Made by a program: the position numbers and the translations under genes. From an uncultured Erysipelotrichaceae bacterium (GTDB taxonomy: Bacteria; Bacillota_I; Bacilli_A; Erysipelotrichales; Erysipelotrichaceae): a DNA stretch of 64,000 nt. Below are positions 32,440 through 52,218 of this stretch, piece after piece (the stretch's first letter is position 1; every line of letters begins with the position of its first letter). Below the pieces are notes generated by a model. It was not told the origin of the DNA, searched no databases, and saw only the letters and a program-made list of their open reading frames with translations. The DNA is taken from the NCBI GenBank assembly GCA_947649125.1, contig CANSQL010000006.1, forward strand, positions 1-64,000, in the 5' to 3' direction.

Positions 32440-33656
32440 GGTAGTGTGCAAAAAATTGTGTAAACCTTCAAAAGTAGTATGATAAAATATATGAAATTGG
32501 AGGTTTTTCTAATGAACAAAAGAAAAGAATTAATAAAGAAATTGATTAAAGAATTTGATCTAAAGGATACAAATGATATTTCAAGCATGTTTCGTGAACT
32601 AATGGGTGACACCATTCAAGAAATGGCTTTTCTGAAAAAAGTATGAGGAGTGAACATGGTGATGTAACAATCAAGATTCCAAGAGATCGTAAGGGTGAAT
32701 TTGAGCCACAGGTCGTTAAAAAATATCAGAAGGATCTAGGTTCAATCGAACATCAAATCATCACATTATATGCCAAAGGTATGAGTAACAGAGAAATTGA
32801 GGATTTCATAAAAAACATGTATGGCGCAGAGGTATCACCTTCCTTGATATCACATATTACCGATCGTATACTGCCGGAAATCAGAGAATGGCAAAACAGA
32901 CCGTTAAAGCGCTTGTATGCGATGGTATTCATGGATGCGATACATTATCATGTACGCAAGGAAGGAAGTGTAGTAAACAAAGCAGTATATATCGCTATCG
33001 GCATTGACATGAGTGGATGTAAAGATGTATTGGGGTTGTATATCGGCGAAGCGGAAACCAGTAAATTCTGGTTAAGTGTAATGAATGAAATCAAAAACAG
33101 AGGGACAGAAGATATTCTGATCTGTTCTGTAGACGGCTTGAACGGCTTTTCACAAGCGATTACAGCGGTATATCCACAGACGATCGTACAACGTTGTATC
33201 GTCCATCAAATACGCAACAGCACACGTTATGTGAGCTATAAAGACATCAGAGAATTCAAGAAGGATTTGAAAAGCATATATCAAGCAGCGACCTTGGAGC
33301 TGGCAGAACATAATTTAGATAAAGTAGAAGAAAAGTGGAAGGATAAGTATCCAAGCTGTATCAAATCATGGCGAGAGAATTGGGCAGAATTAAGTGCATA
33401 TTTTGTTTATCCACAAGCGATACGAAAAGTGATATATACCACGAATTCGATTGAGAATTTCAACCGGCAATTACGAAAAGTGACGAAAACCAAATCCAGT
33501 TATCCAAGCGATGATGCCTTATTAAAATCATTGTACTTGGCAATCTTGGATATCACTAAAAAGTGGACGGGAACACCGCATAACTGGATGAGTATCGCAA
33601 ATCAGCTAATGATTTATTTCGAGGGGAGGATTGTCAATGATGACCTAATCGTTTAA
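32440..33656 (+). mobile_element. IS256-family insertion sequence, damaged
   Basis: Left terminal-repeat-like GGTAGTGTGCAAAAAATTGTGTAAACC at 32440; short N-terminal ORF from 32512 (MNKRKELIKKLIKEFDLKDTNDISSMFRELMGDTIQEMAFLKKV) then out-of-frame mutator-type transposase; no matching right repeat seen. Confidence 0.8.
32643..33656 (+). pseudogene. IS256/mutator family transposase, N-terminally disrupted
   Basis: IPRDRKGEFEPQVVKKYQKD, VFMDAIHYHVR, SVDGLNGFSQAI...VQRCIVHQIRN, IYTTNSIENFNRQLRKVTK; expected LEAELDEHLGY...RNGYS region missing between the two ORFs. Confidence 0.85.
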
Positions 33657-33773
33657 AATAATGGAAAAGCGGCTACTACTTCCGCTTCTTCCTGATATGT
33701 TAAGGCTATCATAAAATTTAAGACACTCTCTACTTATTGAATGTACATGATACTACATAAACGGTAACACATC

Positions 33774-34091
33774 TTATATAAATAATCGTATTGTTTCCTT
33801 TAATTCATCGCTGAACTCCTCTAAATCTTCATATTTAATTGCACCCTCGTGAAGCAAGAAAGTAATATTCTCAATCAATTTGGAGCGTCGCATTTCTGCT
33901 ACAACTCCTACTTTATGTTTATCATGCTGTATTCGCTCATGAAGTTTCCAAAACTTTTGTGCTGACGAATTTTTTCCTTTAAGCAACGCTATATATTCTT
34001 CATTTAGCTTATTCATATAAGCTTCTTGCCATTCTACAATCTTGATTCTAAATAATTTCCAACCCGCTTCCGTATATTGCTTGTTTTGCAT
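33774..34091 (-). CDS. ~105 aa helical protein, partner of AEP-helicase-PLD
   Basis: Start MQNKQYTEAG at 34091 with AGGGGGAA RBS; follows helicase stop; homologous degenerate copy at 47861-48060. Confidence 0.65.
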   Translation of the reverse strand: MQNKQYTEAGWKLFRIKIVEWQEAYMNKLNEEYIALLKGKNSSAQKFWKLHERIQHDKHKVGVVAEMRRSKLIENITFLLHEGAIKYEDLEEFSDELKETIRLFI

Positions 34092-34131
34092 AAGTATTCC
34101 CCCTAGTTCGCAAATAAAAATATTACATGTT

Positions 34132-37071
34132 TTAACCAAATGTCAATTCCAGTAATTCGTCTACAATCTCTTTACTGCATACACGCATTAAATTATCTTC
34201 TACATCTTCTTTACCTAGTAAATTCATACTGCCGTACCATACAATCTCACGATCAATTACACAATAATGCTGACAATTTGATTCTGCAAGATTCAGTTCA
34301 AAGCCATTCCTTAGCATCTTATCATGGAGTGCCATTCGTTTCACACTATTCCCATAATTATACATTTCCGGATGCCAAGTAACGATTCTTACACGAATCC
34401 CACAAGCTTGTTTTTCTTTCAGCATTTCTATAAATTCATTTACTTTATCATCGCTAATAACAGGACTGGATATAATAATCTCACGTTTAGCTTCTAACAG
34501 ATCTTTTTTAAATATTTCTGAATAATTATCGATGTCATATATAGAATTTGCAGCCTGCTTGTCAATATTTATTCCACTATAGATGTCATAACCAATTTGT
34601 TTATATGCTTTTAGTCGTTTATAATACATTTTCTCAAACATTCCGATATGAGCATCCACATAATCATATATAATCACATCTTGTTTTCCTTCGTAATCAC
34701 GATTCAAGCGTCCTGCATATTGCTCCACAACACTTTTCCACGATACGGGTGTAGCCATAAAAAGTGTATCAAGTCTTGGAAAATCAAAGCCTTCACCAAT
34801 CAGCTTTCCGGTAGCGATTAAAATCATACTTTCATTTTGGTTTATCTGTTTCATACGGTCTAATATATGATGATGTTCTTTTTTAGAGCTCTTTCCTGAT
34901 AACAGAAATACTTTATCCGCATGATTATATAAGTGTTCATACAGTTTTTTTGAATGATCGACATATTTAGAAAGTACAACCGGTGTTCTTCCCGACTTCA
35001 CACACCGAATGACATCGCTGATTATCATCTGATCTCTTTTTTCATTTTCTCTAAGAGCTGTATATGCTTCATTGGGATGAACTTTATCTTGTTGAAATTT
35101 TGGCAAAACTGCTTTAGTAAATCTAAAATATACAAAATGCCCAATCCCCTGTTCATTGGCCCTGTCCTTAGAAGTGTACCTATAGCGGATGTCGCCAAGC
35201 AGCATATAATTTATCTTTTCTAAACCGTCACTTCGCAGTGGTGTAGCGGTAACACCATAAACACATTTGGCATTTGCTTCTTGCAAAATCTTAACAATAG
35301 TATCTGAAGCAGCATGATGACATTCATCAACAATGATAAGTCCGTATTCTTTCAATCGTTTATGAAACACCCCTTTTTTGCATACAGAACCAACCATCGC
35401 AATATCAATAATCCCTGTTGTAGAGTCATGGGCTCCTTGAAGCTTACCAATCACACTTTTTCTTTGTTTTACTCTTTTTGTTGGCGTTTCGTATTCCGGC
35501 GGTTCTTCCTCTATAATTAAAAATTTCTCAAGTGCATTTTTCCACTGTTCCATTATCGCAGAAGACTGCAACAGAATTAATGCATTTACTTTTTTGGCAG
35601 CAATAATATTGCAGCAGACTACCGTTTTGCCAAAAGCTGTTGCAGCGTTCAGTATCCCTGTATCGTGTTGCAATAATGCTTTGACAGCCTGCATCTGTAT
35701 CGTTTTTAATTGACCGTTAAACGTAACTTTGATCTTCGCACCGGCGCAGCGGTTATCTTGTATTTCATAATTAATCTCTGCCTTTTGACACTCCCTGATA
35801 ACGTTTTCCAGCAGGCCTCTGGGAATTTTAATATATTCGTTTTCATCTTTTCCAAGATAAATATATCTAGCATTGTTGAAATTTGATAGTTTCATCACTT
35901 GATTTCTATAAAAGATAGGATTTTTAAAAGCTGCCAGTTCTCTGATGCGATTTTGAATTCTCGGTTTTAAGTTTGATGTATTGATATAGATTCCATTTGC
36001 TAAAATAATGTGCATGGTTCCGTTAACATCCGCATTACTAAAACCGTTTGTTTTATCCCAAGGCTTCTCATCATCGAATGATAGTTTAAGAGAATTTTCA
36101 TTAGTCATAGAATTACTTTCAGGAAACCACTCCTTAATTTTATTTTCAATAGATGCTTTAGAGAGCTTGGTTGTATGAAATAAAGCATTCCATTGATCAG
36201 GATAAGCATTCCAATTTTCATCAACAAAAGCACTGTTTCCTTCTTTTAAAGCACGACCTTGTAAAGGTAAAGCAATCAGATTGCCAAGACCGTCATTAAT
36301 AATATGATCCTGCATTGGCAGCATCCTGTCATAATAGTGAAATGATTTTAAATTTACAGACTCAGCTCCCTTTTTCAATAAAGCATTTCCAAGCTTTCTA
36401 GCCAAAGCTGCATCAATCTTCTCTTTGAAAAATATCCATAAATGTGCACCGCGACCGGATCTTGAACGTTCTGTAAGTGAAGCAACTCCATTAAGCTTGC
36501 ATATTGCTCTTAACGTATCTACTTCCGTTTTCCATTTGTTATCTTGATTGGCGTAATCTTGTTTACTCGCGCCTTTTTCATGATTATCAAAATCAAAAAC
36601 AATAAATCTACATGTATCATCTTTTAAGAGAGGATATATGCCGATCACATCAGAACCATCGTCAGAAAGACCTTTTAAATGAGCGATGATTTGCTTTATT
36701 TCAAGTTTTTTATAGATACGCTTTGTGCAGTCACGACATTTAATATTACTACCATATATTCTCGGACATCCGTTTTTCCAAAAATTACTGCATTGTGTAA
36801 AATAACCAACCTCTTTTGTGGTACGATTGACTTTTCGCACACTATAAACATCGGTTCTACCCCAAAACATACTAAAAAATAAGTTTGCATCCTTGTCGGT
36901 TATTTCTCTATGCAGAATTCTTATACCTTGATTTGAATCCTGTAGAATTACATTCTCTGCTCTTTCAGCTATATTATAAGGTATTTGAGCATTATCTAGC
37001 AGTGATTTCAAATAGGTATTCTCTTTTTCCAGGCTGATAATCTTGTCTTGCAGTTCTTTAATATAATCCAT
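34132..37071 (-). CDS. TOTE-type archaeo-eukaryotic primase + SF2 helicase + PLD nuclease fusion
   Basis: FIVFDFDNH and RSRSGRGAHLWIFF primase motifs with CPRIYGSNIKCRDC Zn cluster; GILNAATAFGKT, VDECHHA, GVTATPLRSDG, QYAGRLNRD helicase; HYCVIDREIVWYGSMNLLG PLD-like C-terminus. Confidence 0.88.
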   Translation of the reverse strand: MDYIKELQDKIISLEKENTYLKSLLDNAQIPYNIAERAENVILQDSNQGIRILHREITDKDANLFFSMFWGRTDVYSVRKVNRTTKEVGYFTQCSNFWKNGCPRIYGSNIKCRDCTKRIYKKLEIKQIIAHLKGLSDDGSDVIGIYPLLKDDTCRFIVFDFDNHEKGASKQDYANQDNKWKTEVDTLRAICKLNGVASLTERSRSGRGAHLWIFFKEKIDAALARKLGNALLKKGAESVNLKSFHYYDRMLPMQDHIINDGLGNLIALPLQGRALKEGNSAFVDENWNAYPDQWNALFHTTKLSKASIENKIKEWFPESNSMTNENSLKLSFDDEKPWDKTNGFSNADVNGTMHIILANGIYINTSNLKPRIQNRIRELAAFKNPIFYRNQVMKLSNFNNARYIYLGKDENEYIKIPRGLLENVIRECQKAEINYEIQDNRCAGAKIKVTFNGQLKTIQMQAVKALLQHDTGILNAATAFGKTVVCCNIIAAKKVNALILLQSSAIMEQWKNALEKFLIIEEEPPEYETPTKRVKQRKSVIGKLQGAHDSTTGIIDIAMVGSVCKKGVFHKRLKEYGLIIVDECHHAASDTIVKILQEANAKCVYGVTATPLRSDGLEKINYMLLGDIRYRYTSKDRANEQGIGHFVYFRFTKAVLPKFQQDKVHPNEAYTALRENEKRDQMIISDVIRCVKSGRTPVVLSKYVDHSKKLYEHLYNHADKVFLLSGKSSKKEHHHILDRMKQINQNESMILIATGKLIGEGFDFPRLDTLFMATPVSWKSVVEQYAGRLNRDYEGKQDVIIYDYVDAHIGMFEKMYYKRLKAYKQIGYDIYSGINIDKQAANSIYDIDNYSEIFKKDLLEAKREIIISSPVISDDKVNEFIEMLKEKQACGIRVRIVTWHPEMYNYGNSVKRMALHDKMLRNGFELNLAESNCQHYCVIDREIVWYGSMNLLGKEDVEDNLMRVCSKEIVDELLELTFG

Positions 37072-37166
37072 TTCAAGGCCTTTCTGATATTCATGTGCTT
37101 TTTAAGAATATATTTAGTGTATTCTCTTTTTCTGTTTAATCGCAATGTGAAACCATATACAATTAA

Positions 37167-38408
37167 TTATTCAATATAATATGATTCTTGTTCAAGAACT
37201 TTTTTATTCTTTAAACACATTTTTATCACATTATGAAACACTTCATACCCGTCTTTATCTATTAATCTTTCTAGCGATGTAAAATAATTATCATTCATTT
37301 TTCTGGCAAACTCTAAATGATTCATATAAGTTTCCTCATCCATTCGCATAGGAGTTATATTTTCAAATATCATCCTCAACTTGTAAAACATCTGAAAACC
37401 TCCTAAATCAATATCATCCCATAGACGTACTTTATGATGTTCTGTCATGCTGCTTTTTATTGTGCTATAAAATTTCTTTCGTTGTGCACTGTAATATCCG
37501 CCGGAAAAAATAACTAATTCATCCGTCAGTTTTTCCTTCTTGCAGTATTGTTTATAATTCATTTTATTTTCAATCAATGTTATAGTTCGTATACCATCTA
37601 AATTAAAATTTGATAATTGAGCAGCGACATTACTTCCCAAATACATCCCTTGATCATAGACTGAAAAATCTAAAAGCTTGTTATTAAAATAAGCAGTACA
37701 ATCACCTATAAATTCGAATACTTCTTCATACGTAAATGCACCAATGTGCCTTAGTAATTCATTGTCACTCATTTTATCTTTTTCCTTCAAAAAATTAATA
37801 TCAGGATGGTAATCTTTCAGAATTTTAATCACATACTTCAGTAATACCCTCTCTATATATTTTGAGTTTGAAAATAGCTTTGTACTTAAAGCTCTTATAT
37901 AAAATTCTTCTCCATCAAATATAACCTGCAATACTTTTAATATTCCCTCAATTAACACATTATCTTTAGGCAAATACAATAAACGATTTTTGGCCATAAT
38001 GGAATCCATTACATCTTTCAGAAATTTTTGTCCCCATTCACTTTTCACAGCTTCTTTTTTATCTGATAATAAATGGTAGACAACTAATAAATCTTGTTTG
38101 TTATCTTTTATTCCGGTTAGAGAAGCAATTTTATCGACTTCACTCAAACACATATATATTTTTGTTATATGAAAATCGTTAAACTCATCTACATCATAAG
38201 TTATAAGTTTTCTATCGTGCAAAGAATAAACAGCTTCATTCATTTTACAAACAGAATCATAATCCATGCGATCATATATTTCCCTGCTGAAAGCCTTGTC
38301 TAAATTTAAAATTACTCTTTTGGAACTATTTTTACCTATTTTACTATGATGACTATTATTATAAGAAACCATTAATTTCTTTAATATTTGTAGTTCTAAT
38401 TCGTTCAT
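37167..38408 (-). CDS. jetD: Wadjet-type JetD (Toprim-like, DUF2220-like)
   Basis: TLIENKMNYKQYC, FSGGYYSAQRKKFY, LWDDIDLGGFQMFYKL; ATGA overlap with jetC. Confidence 0.85.
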   Translation of the reverse strand: MNELELQILKKLMVSYNNSHHSKIGKNSSKRVILNLDKAFSREIYDRMDYDSVCKMNEAVYSLHDRKLITYDVDEFNDFHITKIYMCLSEVDKIASLTGIKDNKQDLLVVYHLLSDKKEAVKSEWGQKFLKDVMDSIMAKNRLLYLPKDNVLIEGILKVLQVIFDGEEFYIRALSTKLFSNSKYIERVLLKYVIKILKDYHPDINFLKEKDKMSDNELLRHIGAFTYEEVFEFIGDCTAYFNNKLLDFSVYDQGMYLGSNVAAQLSNFNLDGIRTITLIENKMNYKQYCKKEKLTDELVIFSGGYYSAQRKKFYSTIKSSMTEHHKVRLWDDIDLGGFQMFYKLRMIFENITPMRMDEETYMNHLEFARKMNDNYFTSLERLIDKDGYEVFHNVIKMCLKNKKVLEQESYYIE

Positions 38409-41400
38409 TCACTAAACTCCGTTTCTTTTTTCCAACGATTTAATGAGGAAGATTTAAAACCGTTGATTATCTCTGTTGTTGCTATATAAGTATCATTTGC
38501 TAAAGGGGCTATATATGGTATTTTATCAGTTGGTGTAGCAATTATTGTTTGAAAGCCGGATTCCTTTAACAGCATAACACTCTTTTCTATTCGTTCACTA
38601 TCCATTTTATCAAATGCCTCATCGAAAATTACTAAACGTAAACTATCTCTGCCGCTATCATATAAATTAAGTAATGAGGCTAGTATTGCGATATAGAAAG
38701 GAGTTTGTGTTTCTCCGCCTGATTTTGAGGAGATTGTTTTTGTTAAAGAATTGTCATTCTCAAGAATGTCAAAATCTAGATATGATGTAAAATGAGTATA
38801 TTTTTCTATCCTTTTACCGTTAGCTTCATATTCTTTCTGAGTCATATTATTAAGCTGCGCCACTTCATTAAATAAATTATCAATAATTTCTTTGTTTTCG
38901 TCATATATGCTTGAATTCATTAAATTTCTGCCGTTTAAATCTTCTGACATAATTATTTCATAATAATTTCTATATTCTATATCAGAAGTTGGAGTTGCTA
39001 CAAACTTATATTTAGAATCACCAAAGCGTTGAAGTTTAATTGTTCGATTAATTTGACTTAATTCTCTTGTCACCTTGTCTATTTTTCTTTTTAAAGTCGC
39101 AAAGAATTGGTTTTCAAAACATTCTTTTGCATCTCCATATGCTCTATTTACCTTATTAATATATGTTTTGATTTTATCGTCACTGTAATTGGATATTTCC
39201 CTTATATAGTCTTCATTCTCAATAGCTGTGTTTATAGACATACGGAACTCATTATTGTACTGCGTTTTTAAAAATTCAACATTGCTTTTATTTTCTCTCA
39301 TTTTTATTTCACATTCTGTTTTAATTTTGTTTGAATTCTCAATCTCGATTCTATAATCTTTTTGATAGTCATAAAAATAGTCATCTTTATTAATATTTTT
39401 GTTTATTAACACTTTTTCTTGTATTTCCTTGTTTTGAGAATACTCATTAATGTTGTTTGACAGCCTGTCACGTTCTTCATCAATTTTCGCTCTCTTTTTT
39501 CGTAATTCCCTCAATTCTTCATCAAAATTTTTTATCTCAGCATCTATCTTTTTTAGTTCTTTTTCTTGCTGCATCATAATCTCAAAATCACTTTCAGTAA
39601 GACTTCTTTGTTTTTCTTCCAATAGTCTTTTATTGTCGGAAATAACTTGTATCTTTTTAAAGTACTCATTAATAGCCAATCTTGAATTCAACAGTTTATT
39701 TAAATACGGGATTTGTATTTGGCTAATTGTTCTCTCTGCCTCGTAAATGCGGCTTTCGAGCATTCTTTTATCAGATTCAGCTTGAGCTAACTGCACCGGA
39801 ATAGAATCGACGCCAATAAACGGTTTTTTCCAAAGGTCAGCGGATACCTGTGATACCGCATACGCTGTATACAAGGTTCCGTCTTTTGTCATTGAAGTAA
39901 AATTATCACGAATATTATTATCATTTTCACAACAAACAACGCGATCCAAAAGATATTGAGCATACTTTAACGCTCGTTTATCTTGCGTGTCAACTTTATT
40001 AAATAAGGTTGTTTTTTGTGATTTTTCTTTTAACTTAATTTTTTCTGCGTCGACTAATGAATAACCGGAAATATTGTTATTTTTACAAACCGTTTTAAAA
40101 ACCTTAAATGCATCCATAAAATGCTCCGGATCTACAATTAAGTTCATTTTTTGTTTATGCAAATAAGCTTCAATAGCATTTTTCCATTCCGTGTCTTTTA
40201 CATCAAAGCAATCTGCAAATATATCTACCTTAATATCCTTATGAAAAAGCCGTTTCATTTCTGCAATCATGGATTCTTTTAATGTGATTAATCTATGCGG
40301 GTAATTCTTTTTTCCCTGTTTAAGCTGGAGAATATTTTTTTCAATCTCTGCCAATTCTTCTTGTAACTTGTTTTTCTGATTATAAATCACTGCGTTATAT
40401 ATATTTAAAGATTCTTGTAAATGCTCTAACTCATTAAATATATTTTCATCAAAACTCTCAAATTCACCATCAATACAATTTTTCATTTTTTGAAGTTCAT
40501 GTGAAAGTTTCATTAAATTTATTGACTGAAATTCATTTGTTATTTCATCTTCGCTTAAGTTATCAATAAGATTATCAACTCTCTCTTTTACTGTACTTGT
40601 ACATTTACAAAATTCTATTTTATTTTTTGCAATATATTGTTTGCTCTCTTCAATCGTCTTTTTTATCTGCTCGATTTGCTTGTTTAATGCTTCAAGCGGT
40701 GAGGATGCGTTTTTTAAACTATAATATTCATTCCGTTTATTGTTTTGCTCCTCATTTTTTGAGACGATAATTTGTTCAATTTCACTAAATTCTTTATTTT
40801 TAACCTTATATGAGTTATTGCTTACCTGCAATTCATTTATTAAACTAAAATATTCGAAAACTTCTATATTTTTCGTTTCGTTAATTAATGTCTTTTGTTT
40901 TTGCTTATATTCCTCGGTAAGATCATATATTTGATCCATAAGCTTTCGTTTTTTCTGCGCTATTTCCAGTTCTTGTACAAGATTTTTATAAATTTCCATA
41001 CTTTCGCTTAATTTTTCAAGATCAATCTCTTTTGTTTCGCTGCAGATATATTTTACGATAAATTCCGGTATGTTTTCTAATGGTTTATATGATACAGCTT
41101 TTTTAAATATGTCATAGAAATTAATATGGCGGATTCCTACCCTTGTCATAAAATTCTTTTTATACTCTCCGTTGGTTGTAAAAAATTTTGATTTATTTGA
41201 ATGATCATTGATTCGTAATTTTTTGATGTAAAGTGTCGTTTCTTCTATTGACATCACCTTATTATTCTGAATAAACTGATTCTCAGGAATTGCATCTTGC
41301 AAAAAATAATAACGATATTCCTTCTCACTAATTCCATCACAGTCAAAAACAATCCCGTAACAAAATTTTTCATTTCTTTCATCTTTAAATTCTAAACAAA

Positions 41401-41671
41401 TGTGTGATGAAAAACTTCCCTTTCGTTTAAATTTCCCTTCATCATTTCGTCCTTTAAGATAATCAATCAATTTCCGATCTTTTTTTGTATTACCGGAAGA
41501 TTTATTAAAATTATTATCTCTGGTTTCCCCTAAGATAACGACTTGCAAAGCATCTATAAAAGCTGATTTTCCATGACCGGTTTTACCGCTCAAAAGATTT
41601 ATTTGATCAAATTCCAATAACTCTTTAGAATAATACAGCCAGTTGATAAGCAGCACTCTATTCAGTATCAT
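38405..41671 (-). CDS. jetC: Wadjet-type JetC (SMC/MukB-like ATPase)
   Basis: LLSGKTGHGKSAFIDALQ Walker A, long coiled coil, SKSGGETQTPFYIAIL signature, RLVIFDEAFDKMD Walker B. Confidence 0.92.
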   Translation of the reverse strand: MILNRVLLINWLYYSKELLEFDQINLLSGKTGHGKSAFIDALQVVILGETRDNNFNKSSGNTKKDRKLIDYLKGRNDEGKFKRKGSFSSHICLEFKDERNEKFCYGIVFDCDGISEKEYRYYFLQDAIPENQFIQNNKVMSIEETTLYIKKLRINDHSNKSKFFTTNGEYKKNFMTRVGIRHINFYDIFKKAVSYKPLENIPEFIVKYICSETKEIDLEKLSESMEIYKNLVQELEIAQKKRKLMDQIYDLTEEYKQKQKTLINETKNIEVFEYFSLINELQVSNNSYKVKNKEFSEIEQIIVSKNEEQNNKRNEYYSLKNASSPLEALNKQIEQIKKTIEESKQYIAKNKIEFCKCTSTVKERVDNLIDNLSEDEITNEFQSINLMKLSHELQKMKNCIDGEFESFDENIFNELEHLQESLNIYNAVIYNQKNKLQEELAEIEKNILQLKQGKKNYPHRLITLKESMIAEMKRLFHKDIKVDIFADCFDVKDTEWKNAIEAYLHKQKMNLIVDPEHFMDAFKVFKTVCKNNNISGYSLVDAEKIKLKEKSQKTTLFNKVDTQDKRALKYAQYLLDRVVCCENDNNIRDNFTSMTKDGTLYTAYAVSQVSADLWKKPFIGVDSIPVQLAQAESDKRMLESRIYEAERTISQIQIPYLNKLLNSRLAINEYFKKIQVISDNKRLLEEKQRSLTESDFEIMMQQEKELKKIDAEIKNFDEELRELRKKRAKIDEERDRLSNNINEYSQNKEIQEKVLINKNINKDDYFYDYQKDYRIEIENSNKIKTECEIKMRENKSNVEFLKTQYNNEFRMSINTAIENEDYIREISNYSDDKIKTYINKVNRAYGDAKECFENQFFATLKRKIDKVTRELSQINRTIKLQRFGDSKYKFVATPTSDIEYRNYYEIIMSEDLNGRNLMNSSIYDENKEIIDNLFNEVAQLNNMTQKEYEANGKRIEKYTHFTSYLDFDILENDNSLTKTISSKSGGETQTPFYIAILASLLNLYDSGRDSLRLVIFDEAFDKMDSERIEKSVMLLKESGFQTIIATPTDKIPYIAPLANDTYIATTEIINGFKSSSLNRWKKETEFSE

Positions 41672-42272
41672 TGTTATCCCCACCTTCTCTTAAAGCCTCT
41701 ACGATTGACTTGATTTTTTCATTAGTTAATACATAACAGATATATGGATAAATTTCTATCGCATAATCATCATCTTGTGTTTTTATTACTTTTATTACAT
41801 TCATTCTTTCTAATACAGATAGTGCTTTTAACATGTCATTACTCACCGGATCTGTGCTATAGATATTAAATACTCCTACTAAATTCGTATATAAATCTTC
41901 CATAGTAACTATAGTTTTATTGTCAGAGTTCAAGCTCATCTTTTCTTCTTCATAAAGATAACGAAGCACAAACAGACAGGCAGATTCAAGCTTATTTAAT
42001 TTACATTTAGATACCTCTATATCACTCTCTAAATAAATGATGCTTTTTTCATACTGATCATCTACTATATATAGCTGAAAACCTGCATACTTAAGATATT
42101 CATAAAATATATCAAAATTATTCTTTACAAATTGATAATCTTCATTTAATTCCTTATTTCCTTTCCTATTTATTGAATATTTATTCAGATGATTATAGCG
42201 TAATAATTTTTGAATTGTTTCTTCAAAATGAATTTTGTCATTCTCTTCAAGCATTTCAATTTTCATATTCAT
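41658..42272 (-). CDS. jetB: Wadjet-type JetB (MukE-like)
   Basis: ~200 aa protein overlapping JetA and JetC genes at both ends; position and size. Confidence 0.75.
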   Translation of the reverse strand: MNMKIEMLEENDKIHFEETIQKLLRYNHLNKYSINRKGNKELNEDYQFVKNNFDIFYEYLKYAGFQLYIVDDQYEKSIIYLESDIEVSKCKLNKLESACLFVLRYLYEEEKMSLNSDNKTIVTMEDLYTNLVGVFNIYSTDPVSNDMLKALSVLERMNVIKVIKTQDDDYAIEIYPYICYVLTNEKIKSIVEALREGGDNNDTE

Positions 42273-43683
42273 TCTCCCTCTTCTTAATCGTAAAACCCGG
42301 TAATTCGTATTCATTTTTTGTAATCCGATTCTTATACATATTTATTTCAAAGAACGGTTTACTGACTTTATTATTAATAAATAATAGAATGGTTCGTATA
42401 TAATCATCATCGCCCTGTATTTCTACTGATCGTATATCCATAGCTGAGTCAGACATTTTGGATAAAAAGAATTCATTAATTTTCTTTTCTGTGAATTTTG
42501 AATGCTTCTCATAATTTATAAATTTATTCATTTTCTTATTATCTAATAAAACATGTTCATCACTAAAATCTATTGGTTCTGCTTTTTGTTTCTTTTGTTT
42601 TTTATTAAGATCAGCGATTTGATTTTGAAATATCATTTGCACCGGATTATAGTTTAAAAATTGTTGTACTTTTAATAGTATAGTGTCTTCATGAATGGAA
42701 AATTGCTGTAATATTTCTGTTATAAGTCCCTTAACACTTTGATCTTGGTTAAAGTAACTTATGATTTTTTTATGAGCTACTTGCTGATAATTTGAGTTCT
42801 TATCTACCAACATATCAGTTAAATTCTCAATAATCGAAAGCTGCGAATACATCGTCATTAGTTTTTGTAAAACTGCATTTTTTTCATCCTTAATTCGAAA
42901 GTATGTTTTAGCACTTTCTTGAATTGCATTTTTAAGATCATCTTCTAATATTATGTAATCTAAAATATCTTCGATAGGGCCTTTAAATCTTCTGATGCTA
43001 TCATCTATCAATGTAGGATAAATAAACTTTTGAATGATACCGACATAGTACTCGTCCATATATTCTTCCAGTACATTATCCATTTTTGTTTTTAGTTGTT
43101 TCTCATAATATTCTTTAATCTTAGCATTCATATGTTCCAAGGTTTTTATTAATTCCTGAAAATCAGCATAGGCATTCACTAAATGCTGATAACTGTCTTT
43201 CATATCTTGTTTATTTTTATACGGTTCAACAATGGATTGTAATGAGGCATGTATTCTAATAATATACCCTACCTGTTCTCTTTCTTGTGTTAAATCAAGA
43301 ATGAAATCTATAAAAACGCGTGTACTATATGGGATAATAATAATTTTAGATAAATCGTCACTACTTTGTTCGATTGATATCCATTGATATCTATTTAAAT
43401 AATTTAATATATAGGATACGTTGCCAACATCAAACCCTATAACTTCGGATTTTATTTCCTTAGAAATTATTTCAAACTCTTCGTCATCATGAAAATCTAA
43501 GTCCCATTGTTTATTATGTAAATATATTTCTAAAGCATCTCGAATATCATTTCGATTCATCGACATTTGGCCGCTTTTATTTATTGTTTCATTCAAAAAC
43601 ATTAGAATATCAACAAACTGATACTTATACTTAGAATTTAATGGTTTAAAGAAATTTTCATTTATGTTATCAAACAGCGCCAT
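42256..43683 (-). CDS. jetA: Wadjet-type JetA (MukF-like)
   Basis: 475 aa helical kleisin-like protein as first gene of jetABCD operon. Confidence 0.78.
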   Translation of the reverse strand: MALFDNINENFFKPLNSKYKYQFVDILMFLNETINKSGQMSMNRNDIRDALEIYLHNKQWDLDFHDDEEFEIISKEIKSEVIGFDVGNVSYILNYLNRYQWISIEQSSDDLSKIIIIPYSTRVFIDFILDLTQEREQVGYIIRIHASLQSIVEPYKNKQDMKDSYQHLVNAYADFQELIKTLEHMNAKIKEYYEKQLKTKMDNVLEEYMDEYYVGIIQKFIYPTLIDDSIRRFKGPIEDILDYIILEDDLKNAIQESAKTYFRIKDEKNAVLQKLMTMYSQLSIIENLTDMLVDKNSNYQQVAHKKIISYFNQDQSVKGLITEILQQFSIHEDTILLKVQQFLNYNPVQMIFQNQIADLNKKQKKQKAEPIDFSDEHVLLDNKKMNKFINYEKHSKFTEKKINEFFLSKMSDSAMDIRSVEIQGDDDYIRTILLFINNKVSKPFFEINMYKNRITKNEYELPGFTIKKRENEYEN

Positions 43684-43974
43684 AATTTTCCCCTCTTTTA
43701 TTTATACGTAAATGAGCAAATACATAAGTCGTATATTTCATTTAAATTTTACCATATTTTACAAATTATAAAAAGAGTAAAGTTATTGAAATCATTTCAG
43801 ATGTCTCTTTTATAAAAATAAAAAAGGACTAATTATGGAATAAACACCCTAATTATCGTCCTAATATTCCTATAATTAAACTTTTTTACCATGTTAATAT
43901 ACAAAAAAACAATTCCACCCTTTTATCATTTTAAATTTAGTATGCTTGCATAATTCGCTTGTCCTTATTCAAAA

Positions 43975-44353
43975 TGTGCCTTTACCGATGCCAAAATGAT
44001 AGCATTTATTATTCGTTCCAAGTAATATCCGTGAGCAAACTCAGAAGCAATATCTGTATGAGCATAAGTACCGCCGTATCGTCTTGATTTTGATATGATA
44101 CCGATTGCCTCTATTGCTTTTATCCATTGTTGCGGAGTCAATGTAAATGCATTACCTCCCGACTCTGCCTTAACTTATCGAATTCGATAGGTTTAAAATT
44201 CGGATTATGAATTTGCTCCCATAAACCTAAGAATGAAATCATAGAGTGATTACACATCCGGTTTGCGACTACTGCAAACGCATTATTAGGATTTTTATAT
44301 TTTGCAATATCAGGCAATAAAATATAGGTAACCTCATCAACAATCCCCCCCAT
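43975..44353 (-). pseudogene. KilA-N domain protein, frameshifted and truncated
   Basis: DIAKYKNPNNAFAVVANRMCNHSMISFLGLWEQIHNPNFKPIEFDKLRQ in one frame, ESGGNAFTLTPQQWIKAIEAIGIISKSRRYGGTYAHTDIASEFA in the next frame. Confidence 0.85.
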
Positions 44354-44381
44354 TATTCTGATTGAACAAATTTACCGCTGC

Positions 44382-47300
44382 TTATTCATATGAAAATAAT
44401 TCCATAATCTCTTCCTTTGATAATGACGTAATATTGCCTTGATTATTTTCCACGAACATATCAGCCAACTCCTTCTTTTTCTCCTGAAGCGCTAAAATTT
44501 TCTCCTCGATACTATCCTTCATAATCAGCTTGTGTACTTGTACATTTTTATATTGACCGATTCTGTAAGCACGATCGGTTGCTTGGTTTTGTGCCGATAC
44601 ATTCCACCAAGGATCAAAATGAATTACCGCCTCGGCTCTGGTTAAATTCAACCCTGTTCCGCCCGCTTTCAATGATATTAAGAATACATCCGCTTCTCCT
44701 TCTTGGAATCGCTTTACATATTCTTTTCGATCTTCTTTAGTGGTACTTCCTGTGATTTTAAAATAGGAAATTCCGCTCAAACGCAATTCATCCTCCAGTA
44801 AATCAAATACTTTTGTAAAAGATGAAAATAACAATACCTTTTGATTATTTTGTTTATAATTATTAATTAATTCTAAACTTGCTTTCAATTTAGACGATAC
44901 AATTTCAATATTCTCATAAAGCATACGCGGCTCACAACAAATCTGCCTCAATTTTGTAAGCATAGCCAGAATCTGAATTTTATCAACGACCTTTTCTTTA
45001 AACAATCCCTGCAGTTCACTGTTCACCTGTGCCAGATTGGCAAAGTAAAGCTCGCTTTCTTGTCGAGTAAAAGGAATCAGCTGCGTAACTTCTATTTTAT
45101 CCGGCAATTCTGATAAAACATCTTTTTTGTTTCTTCTTAATATAAACGGTGTCACCAGTTTTTTCAGTTTTTCAGCAACTTCCTCATTGTTGTTTTTAAT
45201 AATTTCAGTTTCATAATGCTTTTGAAAATAGTGATAATTAAATAAATACTGAGGCATTAAAAAATCAAAAACAGACCACAGTTCAGCTAATGAATTTTCT
45301 ATCGGAGTTCCTGATAATGCCAATCGATGTTTTCCGTTTAACAGCTTAACAGATTGCGCATTCTTGGTTTTTTGATTCTTGATATACTGTGATTCATCTA
45401 AAATAATATACTCGAAATCTATTCCTTCATAACATTCGACATCACGACGCATATAATCATAAGATGTAATCAATAACCGATATTGATTATAAGTTAAAAT
45501 CTCTTGTTTTCTTTTATCTGCATTTCCCACAATGCATTTTGCTTTTAAGTGCGGCGCAAATTTGTTTACTTCATCTTCCCAGTTATAAATCAATGATGAC
45601 GGACAAATAACGATACTGGTCTTATCAGACGCTATCTCATCGATCAACGCAATAATCTGCAGTGTCTTGCCTAAGCCCATATCATCGGCCAAAATACCGT
45701 TGAAACCATAATGATACAGTGTTTTCAGCCATTGTAAGCCGTCTTTTTGATAATCTCTTAAAATATTTTGATAATACGGTGTAACGGAATCCGTATGATG
45801 CAGATTTTTATCAAACTGTTCAATCAGCTTATTAAAAGACTGCTTCCGATTCATTTGAATATGCTCATATTGGTTCGCATCATTTTCAATACTAAAAGCA
45901 CGATTCTTATGCAGCTTAATCGTTCCGTTTTTAATATCTTTCGGTTGTAAATGGTAATTATCAACCAAGTCGGACAATTCTTCTAATTCAGGTGATTCCA
46001 AATATAATACTTCGCCGTTTTTCAGCCGATAGAATTTCTTTTTTTGTTTATATTGTTCTAATACTTTTGCGATTTCTATTTTAGGTATATCAGTGCTTTC
46101 AATATCTAACTCTAACAAATCGTTTTCAATTCTCACCCCTACACTGATAGAATAATTGACTGATCTGCCAATTTTTCTTAAGGCATCTGTTACATAAATC
46201 TCCGCATATTGCTTTAAAAAATCCAATCCATCATGCATAAATTCATATGTTTTTCCACTGTTTATATCCAAGTAAACAAGATGCGTTTCTCGGTCCACAG
46301 TTCCGATACTTTGAAAATATTTTTCAACTAAATCTTGACTGTAATTTGTGGTAAATCCGTTTTGGAATGCCGGTATTTTATCTTGATTTTCATTTATATA
46401 ATAAATTTTAAAAACGATTGCGGTATCATCCTCAATATCGCCGTATATTTTAATATTCTCATATTCATTTTCATTTTCTTTATATTCATTCAAATGTTTT
46501 ATATGGAAATAATCTTTTACCGGATATAAAACATACTTATAAAATTCTTCAAATTTATCTTTAGGAATAACCAATTCTTCCTTATTAAAGCTTTTAACCA
46601 GTTTGCAGCATTTATAATCCTGATCTAATAAGAGACGTTCGACTATTACCGTTGTAGTTTCACCGCTTATATTATAAAGATAATTTTGTCCGTGAAAATA
46701 GCATTCATCTAATTTAACAATAAAATATTCATCTTCTTCAATGATTTCTGCTTCAATCGATTCATTCGTTTCACAGAGGTAAGCATGTTCAAGATCATAA
46801 TCTTTATATAAATCATAAAAATCATCGATATTTAAAGCTGATATAAGAAGTTCCCTTCTTATATCAAAACCAAACCCGACATAGAAGCATTCCTCCATCT
46901 TCGGTTTATTATAACCATAATATGATTTGTTTATAAATTCAAGCTGTTGACGGGCAAAATCAGTAAATGCCTGTTCATCATGAGTAAACGCCAAGAATTT
47001 ACCATATTTGATATATTCTTTTTGTTTAATACTGTCCAAAAAATTACCGATATTTTTTATTACATAAGTATGATCGTTGCCGACCTTATATTCAAGAGTG
47101 ATCTCTCTGCCTTCGAAATGCAGCTTCGGATGCAGATCATACTGCTCTTGTGAAATCATAAAGGACAATTCATTTTCATAGCTGCGTTTTTCACTTTCGA
47201 TCATCTGTTCACTTTGTATGGAAAGCTGATGCAGTCGTTCTCTGTATCTTCTTTTTTCCGCTTGTTGCCGCCTTAATTCTTTATCCATGTTGATTGTTTC

Positions 47301-47642
47301 TTCAAATTGGAAACCTGATTTTATATAATGAAACGGATATTCATCAATCTCAAGCTCATTCAGTTTTAACAATACAGCTCCGATATGAGCACAGGGACTG
47401 TTATGATCACACCAATGGCAGTCGCATCCATAGCTGATAATGTGATATTTATAATCATAAAGAAAGGACACTTCATACTCTTTTCCTAACACATTCACAA
47501 TCGCGCTTACATTATAATACACAATATGATTATTAATATGAATCTCTTGTACATTGTCATAATTATCGTAGCTGAAAGAAAGCCGATAGCTGGTTGTATC
47601 AGAAATGATCTCTTCTACATTAAATTTATCGAATAATTGCAT
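44382..47642 (-). CDS. Snf2 family helicase with SWIM zinc finger
   Basis: CDCHWCDHNSPCAHIGAVLL SWIM-type; GILADDMGLGKTLQII, LDESQYIK, ALSGTPIENSL, LISLKAGGTGLNLT, QATDRAYRIGQ. Confidence 0.95.
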   Translation of the reverse strand: MQLFDKFNVEEIISDTTSYRLSFSYDNYDNVQEIHINNHIVYYNVSAIVNVLGKEYEVSFLYDYKYHIISYGCDCHWCDHNSPCAHIGAVLLKLNELEIDEYPFHYIKSGFQFEETINMDKELRRQQAEKRRYRERLHQLSIQSEQMIESEKRSYENELSFMISQEQYDLHPKLHFEGREITLEYKVGNDHTYVIKNIGNFLDSIKQKEYIKYGKFLAFTHDEQAFTDFARQQLEFINKSYYGYNKPKMEECFYVGFGFDIRRELLISALNIDDFYDLYKDYDLEHAYLCETNESIEAEIIEEDEYFIVKLDECYFHGQNYLYNISGETTTVIVERLLLDQDYKCCKLVKSFNKEELVIPKDKFEEFYKYVLYPVKDYFHIKHLNEYKENENEYENIKIYGDIEDDTAIVFKIYYINENQDKIPAFQNGFTTNYSQDLVEKYFQSIGTVDRETHLVYLDINSGKTYEFMHDGLDFLKQYAEIYVTDALRKIGRSVNYSISVGVRIENDLLELDIESTDIPKIEIAKVLEQYKQKKKFYRLKNGEVLYLESPELEELSDLVDNYHLQPKDIKNGTIKLHKNRAFSIENDANQYEHIQMNRKQSFNKLIEQFDKNLHHTDSVTPYYQNILRDYQKDGLQWLKTLYHYGFNGILADDMGLGKTLQIIALIDEIASDKTSIVICPSSLIYNWEDEVNKFAPHLKAKCIVGNADKRKQEILTYNQYRLLITSYDYMRRDVECYEGIDFEYIILDESQYIKNQKTKNAQSVKLLNGKHRLALSGTPIENSLAELWSVFDFLMPQYLFNYHYFQKHYETEIIKNNNEEVAEKLKKLVTPFILRRNKKDVLSELPDKIEVTQLIPFTRQESELYFANLAQVNSELQGLFKEKVVDKIQILAMLTKLRQICCEPRMLYENIEIVSSKLKASLELINNYKQNNQKVLLFSSFTKVFDLLEDELRLSGISYFKITGSTTKEDRKEYVKRFQEGEADVFLISLKAGGTGLNLTRAEAVIHFDPWWNVSAQNQATDRAYRIGQYKNVQVHKLIMKDSIEEKILALQEKKKELADMFVENNQGNITSLSKEEIMELFSYE

Positions 47643-47860
47643 ACTTTTCTCCGTTCTTCCTTTCGCATGATCGACTTAAAATCATCATTGTTTTTAATTT
47701 CAAGTTTACTTACTTTTACAAAGCGTATCAAGCGCAGGATTTATCATTGTCATAGATTATGATTATTGTATCATATTATGACATAAATGATAATAGTAGC
47801 AGAATGGTTTATATATTGACAGCAGTTGGTAAGGCTGCATATCTGTAATCTTTCTTATCC

Positions 47861-48089
47861 AAATAATCGTATTGTTACCTTTAATTCAGGCAATTTGGAG
47901 CATTGCATTTCTGCTTCAGTGTTGACTTTATGTTTATCGTTACGTGTGTGCTTATGAAGCTTCCAAAACTTATTCTGCAATCTCGATCCTAAATAATTTT
48001 CTATCTGCTTACGTGTGATTGTTTTGCATAAGTATTCCTACCGGTTCACATATTATATTGTTAAACCAAAGGTCAGTTCCGGTAATTCT
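47861..48089 (-). pseudogene. Degenerate copy of the 105 aa gene plus helicase 3' end
   Basis: AAATAATCGTATTGTT(A/T)CCTTTAATTCA, TTGTTTTGCATAAGTATTCC and AACCAAA(T/G)GTCA(A/G)TTCC(A/G)GTAATTC shared with 33780-34160, with internal deletions. Confidence 0.85.
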
Positions 48090-48183
48090 ATCATACCAAT
48101 AAAATTATGCCATTTTTTAATTGCACTCAATAGAATTTTATCTTGAGTCTTGGTAAATCACATAATTATTTTATTTTTAAAAT

Positions 48184-48290
48184 TTTAGTACACCGGCATA
48201 ATTCGCTTACCCCTTTTTCAATATGTGCCTTTGTTTTCTACCTCTTGTTTATTTATCAAAATATTTATTGCATAATCTGCTACAAAAGCA
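48184..48290 (-). pseudogene. Degenerate copy of KilA-N gene 3' region
   Basis: TTTAGTA...GCATAATTCGCTT...ATGTGCCTTT shared with 43936-43983. Confidence 0.6.
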
Positions 48291-49830: not shown

Positions 49831-50265
49831 ATGGATATAGGAGAAAGAATTAAATATGTTCGTATGCTAAGAGGAATGCGACAAGAAAAACTTGCCAGCA
49901 AAGTAGGTCTTGGTTATAACGAAAATGGTCGTACTCGTATCTCTCAATATGAGAATGGGAAACGAACGCCTAAAGAAGATATGCTTGAGAAAATCAGTGA
50001 AGCATTAAATGTTGAATCATGTTATCTAAGCACTAAAGAGCATAATGCTATTTTAGATTTTGTATTTATGTTATTCGATTTTGATCAAGATGACTTATTC
50101 AATATTACAAAAGAAAATAAACGTTACTTAATAGACTTAGACTATAACATCTTCCTCGATGACTTAATGGAAGAATGGATGCAAAAAAAGGCTGATTTTA
50201 GAAGTGGTAAAATCAGCAAAGAAGAATACATAGACTGGAAAATCAATTATACAGGTAAAAAATAG
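49831..50265 (+). CDS. XRE family HTH regulator
   Basis: RIKYVRMLRGMRQEKLASKVGLGYNENGRTRISQYENGKRTPKEDMLEKISEALNV. Confidence 0.9.
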   Translation: MDIGERIKYVRMLRGMRQEKLASKVGLGYNENGRTRISQYENGKRTPKEDMLEKISEALNVESCYLSTKEHNAILDFVFMLFDFDQDDLFNITKENKRYLIDLDYNIFLDDLMEEWMQKKADFRSGKISKEEYIDWKINYTGKK

Positions 50266-50276
50266 GAGCGATTAAA

Positions 50277-51572
50277 ATGGATTTATTAATACCTTTATTA
50301 ATTATTCTGGTAGCATTAATTACTTTATACATATTTCAAAACAAAAAGAAAAAAGATGCATCCACTTCTAATATTGTTAAAGTCGAAGAGGAAAACAACT
50401 ACTTATTTCCAGTCCAACTTGATACAGATTTATTTATGACTGTAAATGAACTTTCAGCAGTTGAACAACCTACTGAAAATAAATTAGTTGAAATAAAAGA
50501 TTCTAAGTTAATTGCAAGAATCAATGAGGCATTTCCTCATATTGTTCAACTTGCCTTAAATTCTCATAATTTAAAAAACAATGTTCAAATGGCTCAACAA
50601 ATAAACGATTTTAACAATCAACATGGTGGTAAATTATATGAAGCCATTATTCCAGCAAATACTAAGTTGTTTAAATCTAAATCAATGCAAGGTGCTGTAC
50701 GTGGTGGTTATTTAGACATTAATAAACAAACTAAACAGGCAAACTTTATGCCAGTCGATACATTGAACGCTTCGGATGTAAATGTAGTTGCTAATTTAAC
50801 TGCTAGTGCGATGAATATAGTTTCTATGGTAGTTGGTCAATATTATATGGCTCAAATTGATGATAAATTAGGAAATATCCAAGATGATATCTCTGATATT
50901 AAAAGTTTTCTAGATGATGAGCGTATATCTAAAATCCAACAATTAGTTATTAACGTTTCAGTAATTATCAAACACCAAGATGAAATATCTACAAATGAAT
51001 ATATTAACGATAAAGAACTACAAAAACTTTATGATTATGAAGAAGTAGCGGGTAGCATTCTTACACATGTCAACAAAGATATTTCAAATATCATTGCTAA
51101 AGAATCAGCAAATGACTTTGCCGAATATAAGAAAAATACAGAAAACCTAGATAAACTACTTAAAGAGCAAGAAGTTTTAATTAAAGTTATGAATCAAATT
51201 AGTTCTCTAAAATATATATTATTTCATGGTTCAGCAAGTACAGAATATTGTTACGAAAGATTTAACATTGCACTAAATCAATCCTCAGTAGTAAAAGAAC
51301 AAATCAAAACATATCAAAACAAAGAAACAAAAGCAATTGAAGTTGATTTAGAAAAAGCTCGTTACAGGAAAAGTTATTTTCTAGACAATGTTGTTCAACC
51401 TGTTCTCGGAGTAATTGATGAAAATATGAATTACATTAATCTAGAAGAAACACTTCTAAACAAAATAAAAAAACAAATTAATAATGAAGAATTACAAACT
51501 ATTGAATTTAATGTTTATGAGGAAGATACTAGACTATTAATTAAGGATGGAAAAATGTATTATGAACATTAA
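50277..51572 (+). CDS. Membrane-anchored protein of unknown function with coiled-coil
   Basis: N-terminal TM LLIPLLIILVALITLYIF then long cytosolic helical domain; 11 nt after XRE gene. Confidence 0.75.
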   Translation: MDLLIPLLIILVALITLYIFQNKKKKDASTSNIVKVEEENNYLFPVQLDTDLFMTVNELSAVEQPTENKLVEIKDSKLIARINEAFPHIVQLALNSHNLKNNVQMAQQINDFNNQHGGKLYEAIIPANTKLFKSKSMQGAVRGGYLDINKQTKQANFMPVDTLNASDVNVVANLTASAMNIVSMVVGQYYMAQIDDKLGNIQDDISDIKSFLDDERISKIQQLVINVSVIIKHQDEISTNEYINDKELQKLYDYEEVAGSILTHVNKDISNIIAKESANDFAEYKKNTENLDKLLKEQEVLIKVMNQISSLKYILFHGSASTEYCYERFNIALNQSSVVKEQIKTYQNKETKAIEVDLEKARYRKSYFLDNVVQPVLGVIDENMNYINLEETLLNKIKKQINNEELQTIEFNVYEEDTRLLIKDGKMYYEH

Positions 51573-52218
51573 TTTCGAATTTTATAAAGATGAACAAATA
51601 ATCAAAGAAAAAATCAACTACTTAGAAACTCTAGCTAGAGAACAAGTTTGTAAAATTAAATCGTTACATATTGAAGATTTATATTTCATGTCTGCAATTG
51701 ACAAATCAATTAAACTAATTGACTCATTTCTATTTGCATTTGATCAACGTAATATCACTATATTAGCTGCTCTTACTAGAATTCAAACGGATTGTGTACT
51801 TAGAACTTATGCAACCACATTAGTTGAAGACAGTACAGATTTTTGTAATAAAGTTTTATATGATAATATTATCATCAGCAGATATTCTGACTCCAAAGGT
51901 AAATCATTAACAGACAAATATCTTTGTGAAAATCTAGGAAAGCTTTTAAAAATGGATGTTTATAAAATTTATTCAAAAACTTCTGGTTTTATCCATTTTT
52001 CATCTGATAGCTTTCACAATATAGCCAGAGCTCATGATGACGGAAAAATAGAATTATTTATTAGTAAAACTATTCGAAAAGAAGACGAACAAACATATAA
52101 ACGTCTTTCAATAGAATTAGCAAATGATTTTTACTTTTTTGGTAAGATTCTTATAGAATTAGTTTTAAAATCATGGCTTTTACAAATCCAAAGAGAAGAA
52201 AAAGAACTAAATGAATAA
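51562..52218 (+). CDS. All-helical protein of unknown function (HEPN/DUF5677-like?)
   Basis: Start MNINFEFYKDE at 51562 overlapping upstream gene; ALTRIQTDCVLRTYA and YSKTSGFIHFSSDSFHN motifs. Confidence 0.65.
   Translation: MNINFEFYKDEQIIKEKINYLETLAREQVCKIKSLHIEDLYFMSAIDKSIKLIDSFLFAFDQRNITILAALTRIQTDCVLRTYATTLVEDSTDFCNKVLYDNIIISRYSDSKGKSLTDKYLCENLGKLLKMDVYKIYSKTSGFIHFSSDSFHNIARAHDDGKIELFISKTIRKEDEQTYKRLSIELANDFYFFGKILIELVLKSWLLQIQREEKELNE

What the first reader, a model, noticed from the sequence alone, without database searches (positions are those of the whole stretch)
33774..43683. Wadjet operon fused co-directionally to an AEP primase-helicase-PLD gene and a small helical partner
jetABCD-type genes overlap each other (jetC/jetD by ATGA). 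95 nt later, same strand, comes a TOTE-type primase + SF2 helicase + PLD-like protein, then a ~105 aa helical protein. Wadjet is a known plasmid-DNA-cleaving SMC system. The appended primase/helicase/PLD pair could be a second defence module or a functional extension of Wadjet. I do not know this six-gene combination as a described system.
Basis: partly seen in the sequence, partly recalled or inferred. Interest (0 to 1): 0.75.

Follow-up and report, generated by a model that had tools for sequence, protein, structure and literature searches.

The report
Wadjet operon beside independent primase-helicase gene
A gut bacterium carries an ordinary plasmid-destroying Wadjet operon with an unrelated primase-helicase gene and a small orphan gene behind it; comparison with relatives shows that these are neighbours that come and go separately, not a new six-gene defence machine.

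Summary
The genes are real and in the stated order: a type I Wadjet operon (jetA 42256-43683, jetB, jetC, jetD 37167-38408), then 95 nt, then an AEP primase + SF2 helicase + PLD-like protein (34132-37071), then a ~105-aa helical protein, all on the minus strand. The proposed six-gene unit is not supported. Among 64 genomes found to carry this AEP family, none but the window's own has jetD next to it. The genomes with the nearest AEP relatives (62-67% identity) have no jetD at all. A close relative (L005) keeps the same jetC-jetD-95 nt-AEP layout, but its AEP is a pseudogene with three stop codons while jetC and jetD stay open. A second close relative (L004, sampled again as G001) carries the same dead AEP and an intact small gene but no Wadjet. 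In a third (G002, jetD 80% identical), jetD is followed by a Bax1-I family gene. The 'PLD' part lacks the catalytic His of the HKD motif, so it is probably not a nuclease. The small protein is an orphan family found beside many unrelated genes. The AEP protein resembles known non-CRISPR primase-polymerase/helicase proteins. Best reading: a variable region near guaA holding several independent genes.

The parts
42256..43683 (-). jetA (kleisin), 475 aa
   Evidence: Pfam JetA 1.4e-50; PADLOC JetA1 1.3e-51
41658..42314 (-). jetB (KITE), up to 218 aa; long start overlaps jetA
   Evidence: DUF4194 4.7e-15; PADLOC JetB1 3.6e-36
38405..41683 (-). jetC (SMC ATPase), 1092 aa; Walker A GKTGHGKS, signature SGGE, Walker B LVIFDE present
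   Evidence: PADLOC JetC1 1e-225; motifs; distant match to solved JetC 8dk1/8dk2
37167..38408 (-). jetD (Toprim nuclease), 413 aa; IEN and DIDLGG motif present
   Evidence: JetD_C 1e-21; PADLOC JetD1 4e-75
34132..37071 (-). AEP primase-polymerase + SF2 helicase + degenerate PLD-like domain, 979 aa, intact here
   Evidence: AEP-TOTE 63-310, ResIII 454-612, Helicase_C 688-791, PLDc_2 857-973; AEP DxD/His and helicase motifs intact, PLD His missing
33774..34091 (-). small all-helical orphan protein, 105 aa (ORF extends to TTG 34139)
   Evidence: family in 42 of 316 genomes; alignment sets the start; no Pfam, NCBIfam, PADLOC or PHROG match above cut-off
37072..37166 (-). 95-nt jetD-AEP intergenic region, no terminator detected, own ribosome-binding site for AEP
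   Evidence: kept without indels in L005
47853..48088 (-). decayed second copy of [AEP 3' tip + small gene], directly upstream of the SNF2 gene
   Evidence: 74-92% DNA identity in three blocks to 33772-34158
44382..47642 (-). SNF2-family helicase, 1086 aa, neighbour upstream of jetA
   Evidence: SNF2-rel_dom 8e-72, SNF2_assoc 2e-41; 90% identical gene follows the small gene in L004/G001
43921..44390 (-). broken KilA-N-like gene between SNF2 and jetA; its 3' end recurs at 48169-48232
   Evidence: reading frames, family recognised by eye, not by profile; self-match 80% over 66 nt, no other copy in the genome

Best explanation
A standard type I Wadjet operon and an independent, mobile-element-type primase-polymerase/helicase gene, followed by an orphan small gene, sit side by side in a variable region next to guaA. 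Wadjet presumably works alone: JetABC extrudes circular DNA and JetD cuts it (inferred from the family). The AEP protein is probably a self-contained primase-polymerase coupled to an SF2 helicase with a non-catalytic PLD-like, possibly DNA-binding, tail, acting in replication/repair or as its own defence protein (inferred). Co-transcription by read-through is possible, but relatives show that no part needs the others.
For: Wadjet without AEP: G002 jetC/jetD (about 80% aa identity) with synteny ending at 37163, at the jetD stop, followed by a Bax1-I family gene. Wadjet with a dead AEP: L005 has jetC (to the contig edge) and jetD open with dN/dS about 0.2, while AEP has stops at codons 79, 127 and 183. 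AEP remnant + small without Wadjet: L004/G001; a JetD search of that genome is empty. AEP without Wadjet: whole genomes of L002 and L003 (66-67%, full-length AEP) and L006 (partial AEP) have no JetD. Adjacent in only 1 of 64 AEP-bearing genomes over the order, class and phylum scans (one of the 64, with a sub-cut-off AEP match, was not searched for JetD). AEP-helicase relatives occur on 218 plasmids; of the listed plasmid hits only one record bears both AEP and JetC, far apart. The small family lies beside integrase, RhuM, AbiEii, N6-methylase, NUDIX, HD and MgsA genes. CAPP paper: Prim-Pol + helicase is the commonest non-CRISPR architecture, typically on mobile elements (PMC8211822).
Against: AEP and JetD co-occur in genomes more than expected (18 vs 6.8, Fisher p 8e-6, not corrected for phylogeny or genome size). 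The jetD-AEP layout, with its 95-nt spacer, is shared by the window and L005, so it is older than their split (dS about 0.16-0.22). There is no terminator between jetD and AEP. The window's AEP is intact.
Confidence: 0.8

Rival explanations
1. The AEP protein is a functional extension of this Wadjet: after JetD linearises a plasmid, the helicase/primase unwinds or processes the ends.
For: Same strand, 95-nt spacer without terminator, layout shared with L005; genome-level co-occurrence above expectation.
Against: L005 keeps jetC/jetD open with AEP dead; G002 has jetD without AEP; the nearest AEP relatives live in genomes without JetD; the PLD lacks its catalytic His; no other adjacency in 64 AEP-bearing genomes.
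Confidence: 0.06
2. AEP + small form their own two-gene defence module that has landed next to Wadjet.
For: Adjacent in the window, in G001 and in G208, a different genus, and as a relic at 47853-48088; AEP and small co-occur in 14 genomes vs 6.2 expected.
Against: All other small genes examined are not next to AEP, and all other AEP loci examined lack small; in G001 and G208 small survives although AEP is broken; the small-gene contexts are diverse.
Confidence: 0.14
3. The whole stretch (KilA-N, jetABCD, AEP, small, SNF2) was once one cargo cassette that duplicated around SNF2 and is decaying.
For: A KilA-N-like relic precedes both the intact jet-AEP-small unit and the decayed AEP tip-small unit; G001 has AEP-small-SNF2; L005 and G001 share the same three AEP stops, so their common ancestor probably carried jet-AEP.
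Against: No element ends, integrase or complete second copy were found; only fragments support the duplication. This concerns history, not joint function, and is compatible with the best explanation.
Confidence: 0.35

Closest known systems
Type I Wadjet (JetABCD / MksBEFG / EptABCD)
   Same: All four subunits, gene order, PADLOC JetA1-D1 matches, ATPase and Toprim motifs
   Different: Only distant in sequence to solved JetC (28 bits, E 5e-6); extra genes downstream are not part of the family
CRISPR-associated primase-polymerases, CAPP_A with helicase (non-CRISPR members on mobile elements; PMC8211822)
   Same: AEP catalytic domain followed by helicase; sequence match to solved catalytic cores 7nqd/7nqf (that these are CAPP enzymes is from memory) and to PADLOC PrimPol
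   Different: No Cas1 in the genome; carries a C-terminal degenerate PLD-like domain
TOTE conflict systems (TPR, OB, TBP, Effector)
   Same: Pfam AEP-TOTE name for the primase domain
   Different: No TPR, OB or TBP protein among the neighbours scanned; definition from PMC12458937
PLD-family nucleases (HKD)
   Same: PLDc_2 match, D(x)6G..N half of the motif
   Different: No intact HxK in the window or in any relative; catalytic His present in only 1 of 14, without the Lys

Membership tests
Type I Wadjet | jetA, jetB, jetC, jetD in one operon | tested here: met
Type I Wadjet | SMC ATPase motifs in JetC and Toprim motif in JetD | tested here: met
Type I Wadjet | Restriction of circular plasmids | not testable with these tools
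   needs experiment
CAPP_A-type primase-polymerase with helicase | AEP domain with DxD and His, fused to SF2 helicase | tested here: met
CAPP_A-type primase-polymerase with helicase | Operonic with Cas1/Cas2 (CRISPR-associated subset) | tested here: not met
   no Cas1 in the genome; no 24-mer repeated three or more times in the window
TOTE conflict system | TPR, OB and TBP components beside an effector | tested here: not met
   neighbours scanned, none found
PLD nuclease | HxK(x)4D(x)6GSxN active site | tested here: not met
   C-x-H in place of H-x-K in the window; no intact HxK among the 14 proteins that show the motif region
Six-gene Wadjet-AEP system | Recurrent adjacency of jetABCD and AEP with both intact | tested here: not met
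   1 of 64 AEP-bearing genomes; the only other adjacent case (L005) has a dead AEP
Six-gene Wadjet-AEP system | Single transcript across 37071-37167 | not testable with these tools
   no terminator predicted, RNA data needed

The most novel reading that the evidence does not exclude
In this one lineage the primase-helicase has been recruited to Wadjet, unwinding or converting JetD-linearised plasmid DNA, with the degenerate PLD domain as a DNA-end reader and the small protein as regulator.
Probability: 0.05. Interest if true: 0.6.

Novelty: new member of a known kind. Interest (0 to 1): 0.2.

Why it matters
It shows that tight, co-directional spacing in a variable region is weak evidence for a defence system: here relatives carry natural 'knock-outs' of each part. 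It also flags two side points worth knowing: a PLD call from a profile match that lacks the catalytic residue, and an uncharacterised ~105-aa family scattered through gut bacterial genomes, often next to defence or mobile-element genes.

Tried and rejected
AlphaFold models of the small protein (mean pLDDT 60) and of the AEP protein (37, three-sequence alignment) were too poor for fold searches, so none was run. PHROGs, NCBIfam, Pfam and PADLOC gave no name for the small protein. No AEP relatives in IMG/VR. TOTE membership, a CRISPR link and an active PLD nuclease were considered and rejected. The genome-contig scan gave only 7 loci because a single protein finds close relatives only. The empty small-gene search in the L005 genome (1.4 Mb, looks partial) is uninformative.

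Full report
Observation. The window's minus strand carries jetA-jetB-jetC-jetD (43683 down to 37167), a 979-aa protein (34132-37071) and a small ORF (33774-34139). Profile searches identify type I Wadjet subunits and an AEP-TOTE + SF2 helicase + PLDc_2 protein. ATPase motifs in JetC and the Toprim motif in JetD are present. The jetD-AEP spacer is 95 nt and has no predicted terminator; AEP has its own ribosome-binding site. The small gene most likely starts at 34091, giving 105 aa.

Domain check. In the AEP protein the AEP DxD and His, Walker A, DEAH-box and motif VI residues are intact and conserved in relatives. The PLD half-site D(x)6GSxN is kept, but the residue seven before the Asp, which should be His, is Cys, and the Lys position is His. 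Of 16 near-full-length proteins (window included) 14 show the motif region and none has an intact HxK. The domain is therefore probably a DNA-binding or structural remnant. Closest solved relatives are the catalytic cores 7nqd/7nqf, which I take from memory to be CAPP enzymes (deposited as 'TPR_REGION domain-containing protein'), and XPB/UvsW helicases. The CAPP paper reports that Prim-Pol + helicase is the commonest non-CRISPR architecture and is typically found on mobile elements (PMC8211822). The host genome has no Cas1. 'TOTE' stands for TPR, OB, TBP, Effector (PMC12458937); none of these is found among the neighbours scanned, so only the Pfam name applies.

Co-occurrence. In 316 genomes of the same order AEP-TOTE is found in 47 and JetD_C in 46; 18 have both (6.8 expected, Fisher p 8e-6, not corrected for phylogeny or genome size). 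Adjacency occurs only in the window's genome; the next closest cases are 12-17 kb apart (G008, G044, G279). Class and phylum samples add 17 AEP-bearing genomes. Sixteen of these were searched for JetD and three have it, none adjacent; the nearest is 26 kb away on the same contig, in G367. On plasmids AEP-helicase relatives occur on 218 records and JetC relatives on 16. Of the 15 JetC records listed, only Microvirga sp. VF16 is also among the 40 AEP records listed, and there the two are far apart.

Natural dissections in close relatives. (a) L005: jetC-jetD-95 nt-AEP as in the window, jetC (to the contig edge) and jetD open with dN/dS about 0.2, but AEP has in-frame stops at codons 79, 127 and 183. 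(c) G002: jetC/jetD about 80% identical, with DNA similarity ending at 37163, at the jetD stop, followed by Bax1-I and aspartyl-protease genes. (d) L002, L003 and L006: AEP 62-67% identical (only 268 aa in L006), no JetD in their genomes. Each part persists without the others.

History. The window holds a decayed [AEP tip + small] copy at 47853-48088 directly upstream of SNF2, the place where G001 has its AEP remnant-small pair. A broken KilA-N-like gene sits before jetA, and its 3' end recurs before the decayed copy; there is no third copy in the genome. Because L005 and G001 share the same stops, their common ancestor probably carried jet-AEP, and G001 then lost Wadjet. A tandem duplication in the window's lineage is plausible but rests on fragments.

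The small protein. Its family occurs in 42 of 316 genomes. Neighbours examined include an integrase in what looks like a type I restriction locus, RhuM, AbiEii, N6-methylase, NUDIX, HD-domain, DnaJ and MgsA genes. AEP-small adjacency is seen in the window, in G001 and, with a broken AEP, in G208. It is an orphan family, not a Wadjet subunit.

Verdict. A correct reading of the genes, but the proposed six-gene system is not supported. The plain account is a known type I Wadjet next to a known type of primase-helicase and an orphan gene in a variable region. What cannot be excluded is a lineage-specific interaction in the window's own species, where all six genes are intact; transcription and function were not testable.

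Noticed in passing
33774-34091 and family loci L083-L103, L123-L126: An uncharacterised ~105-aa helical family with invariant W, R, WQ, FW, D, GV, R, L, F positions, in 42 of 316 genomes, often directly behind restriction, AbiE, RhuM or other genes, sometimes housekeeping genes.
   Followed up: partly
47853-48088: Decayed second copy of the AEP 3' tip and small gene upstream of SNF2.
   Followed up: yes
43921-44390 and 48169-48232: Broken KilA-N-like gene and a repeat of its 3' end.
   Followed up: partly
L104:16994-20000 and L110: In G008 and G011 (one genus, same order) a homologue of the window's SNF2 helicase follows jetD, by 27 nt in G008; in the window SNF2 lies upstream of jetA. A recurrent Wadjet-SNF2 neighbourhood may deserve a count.
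   Followed up: no
49831-52218 and L103:5880-7173: Beside guaA the window has HTH + two unknown genes, while G001 has a DUF3990/HTH pair matching PADLOC candidates PDC-M42A/B: the site looks like an exchange hotspot.
   Followed up: no
L091:5263-6505 (G208), L103 (G001), L114, L116, L120, L121: AEP-helicase genes are often broken (stops, frameshifts, internal deletions); some breaks may be assembly errors. In G001 and G208 both ends of AEP and the small gene remain.
   Followed up: partly
L084, L094: A small-family gene sits beside an integrase in a cluster of what look like restriction genes (sizes suggest HsdM, HsdS, HsdR; not profiled), possibly a phase-variable hsdS locus.
   Followed up: no
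32643-33656: Mutator-family transposase ORF that matches the Pfam model only from position 72, so probably truncated at the N-terminus, just downstream of the small gene.
   Followed up: no
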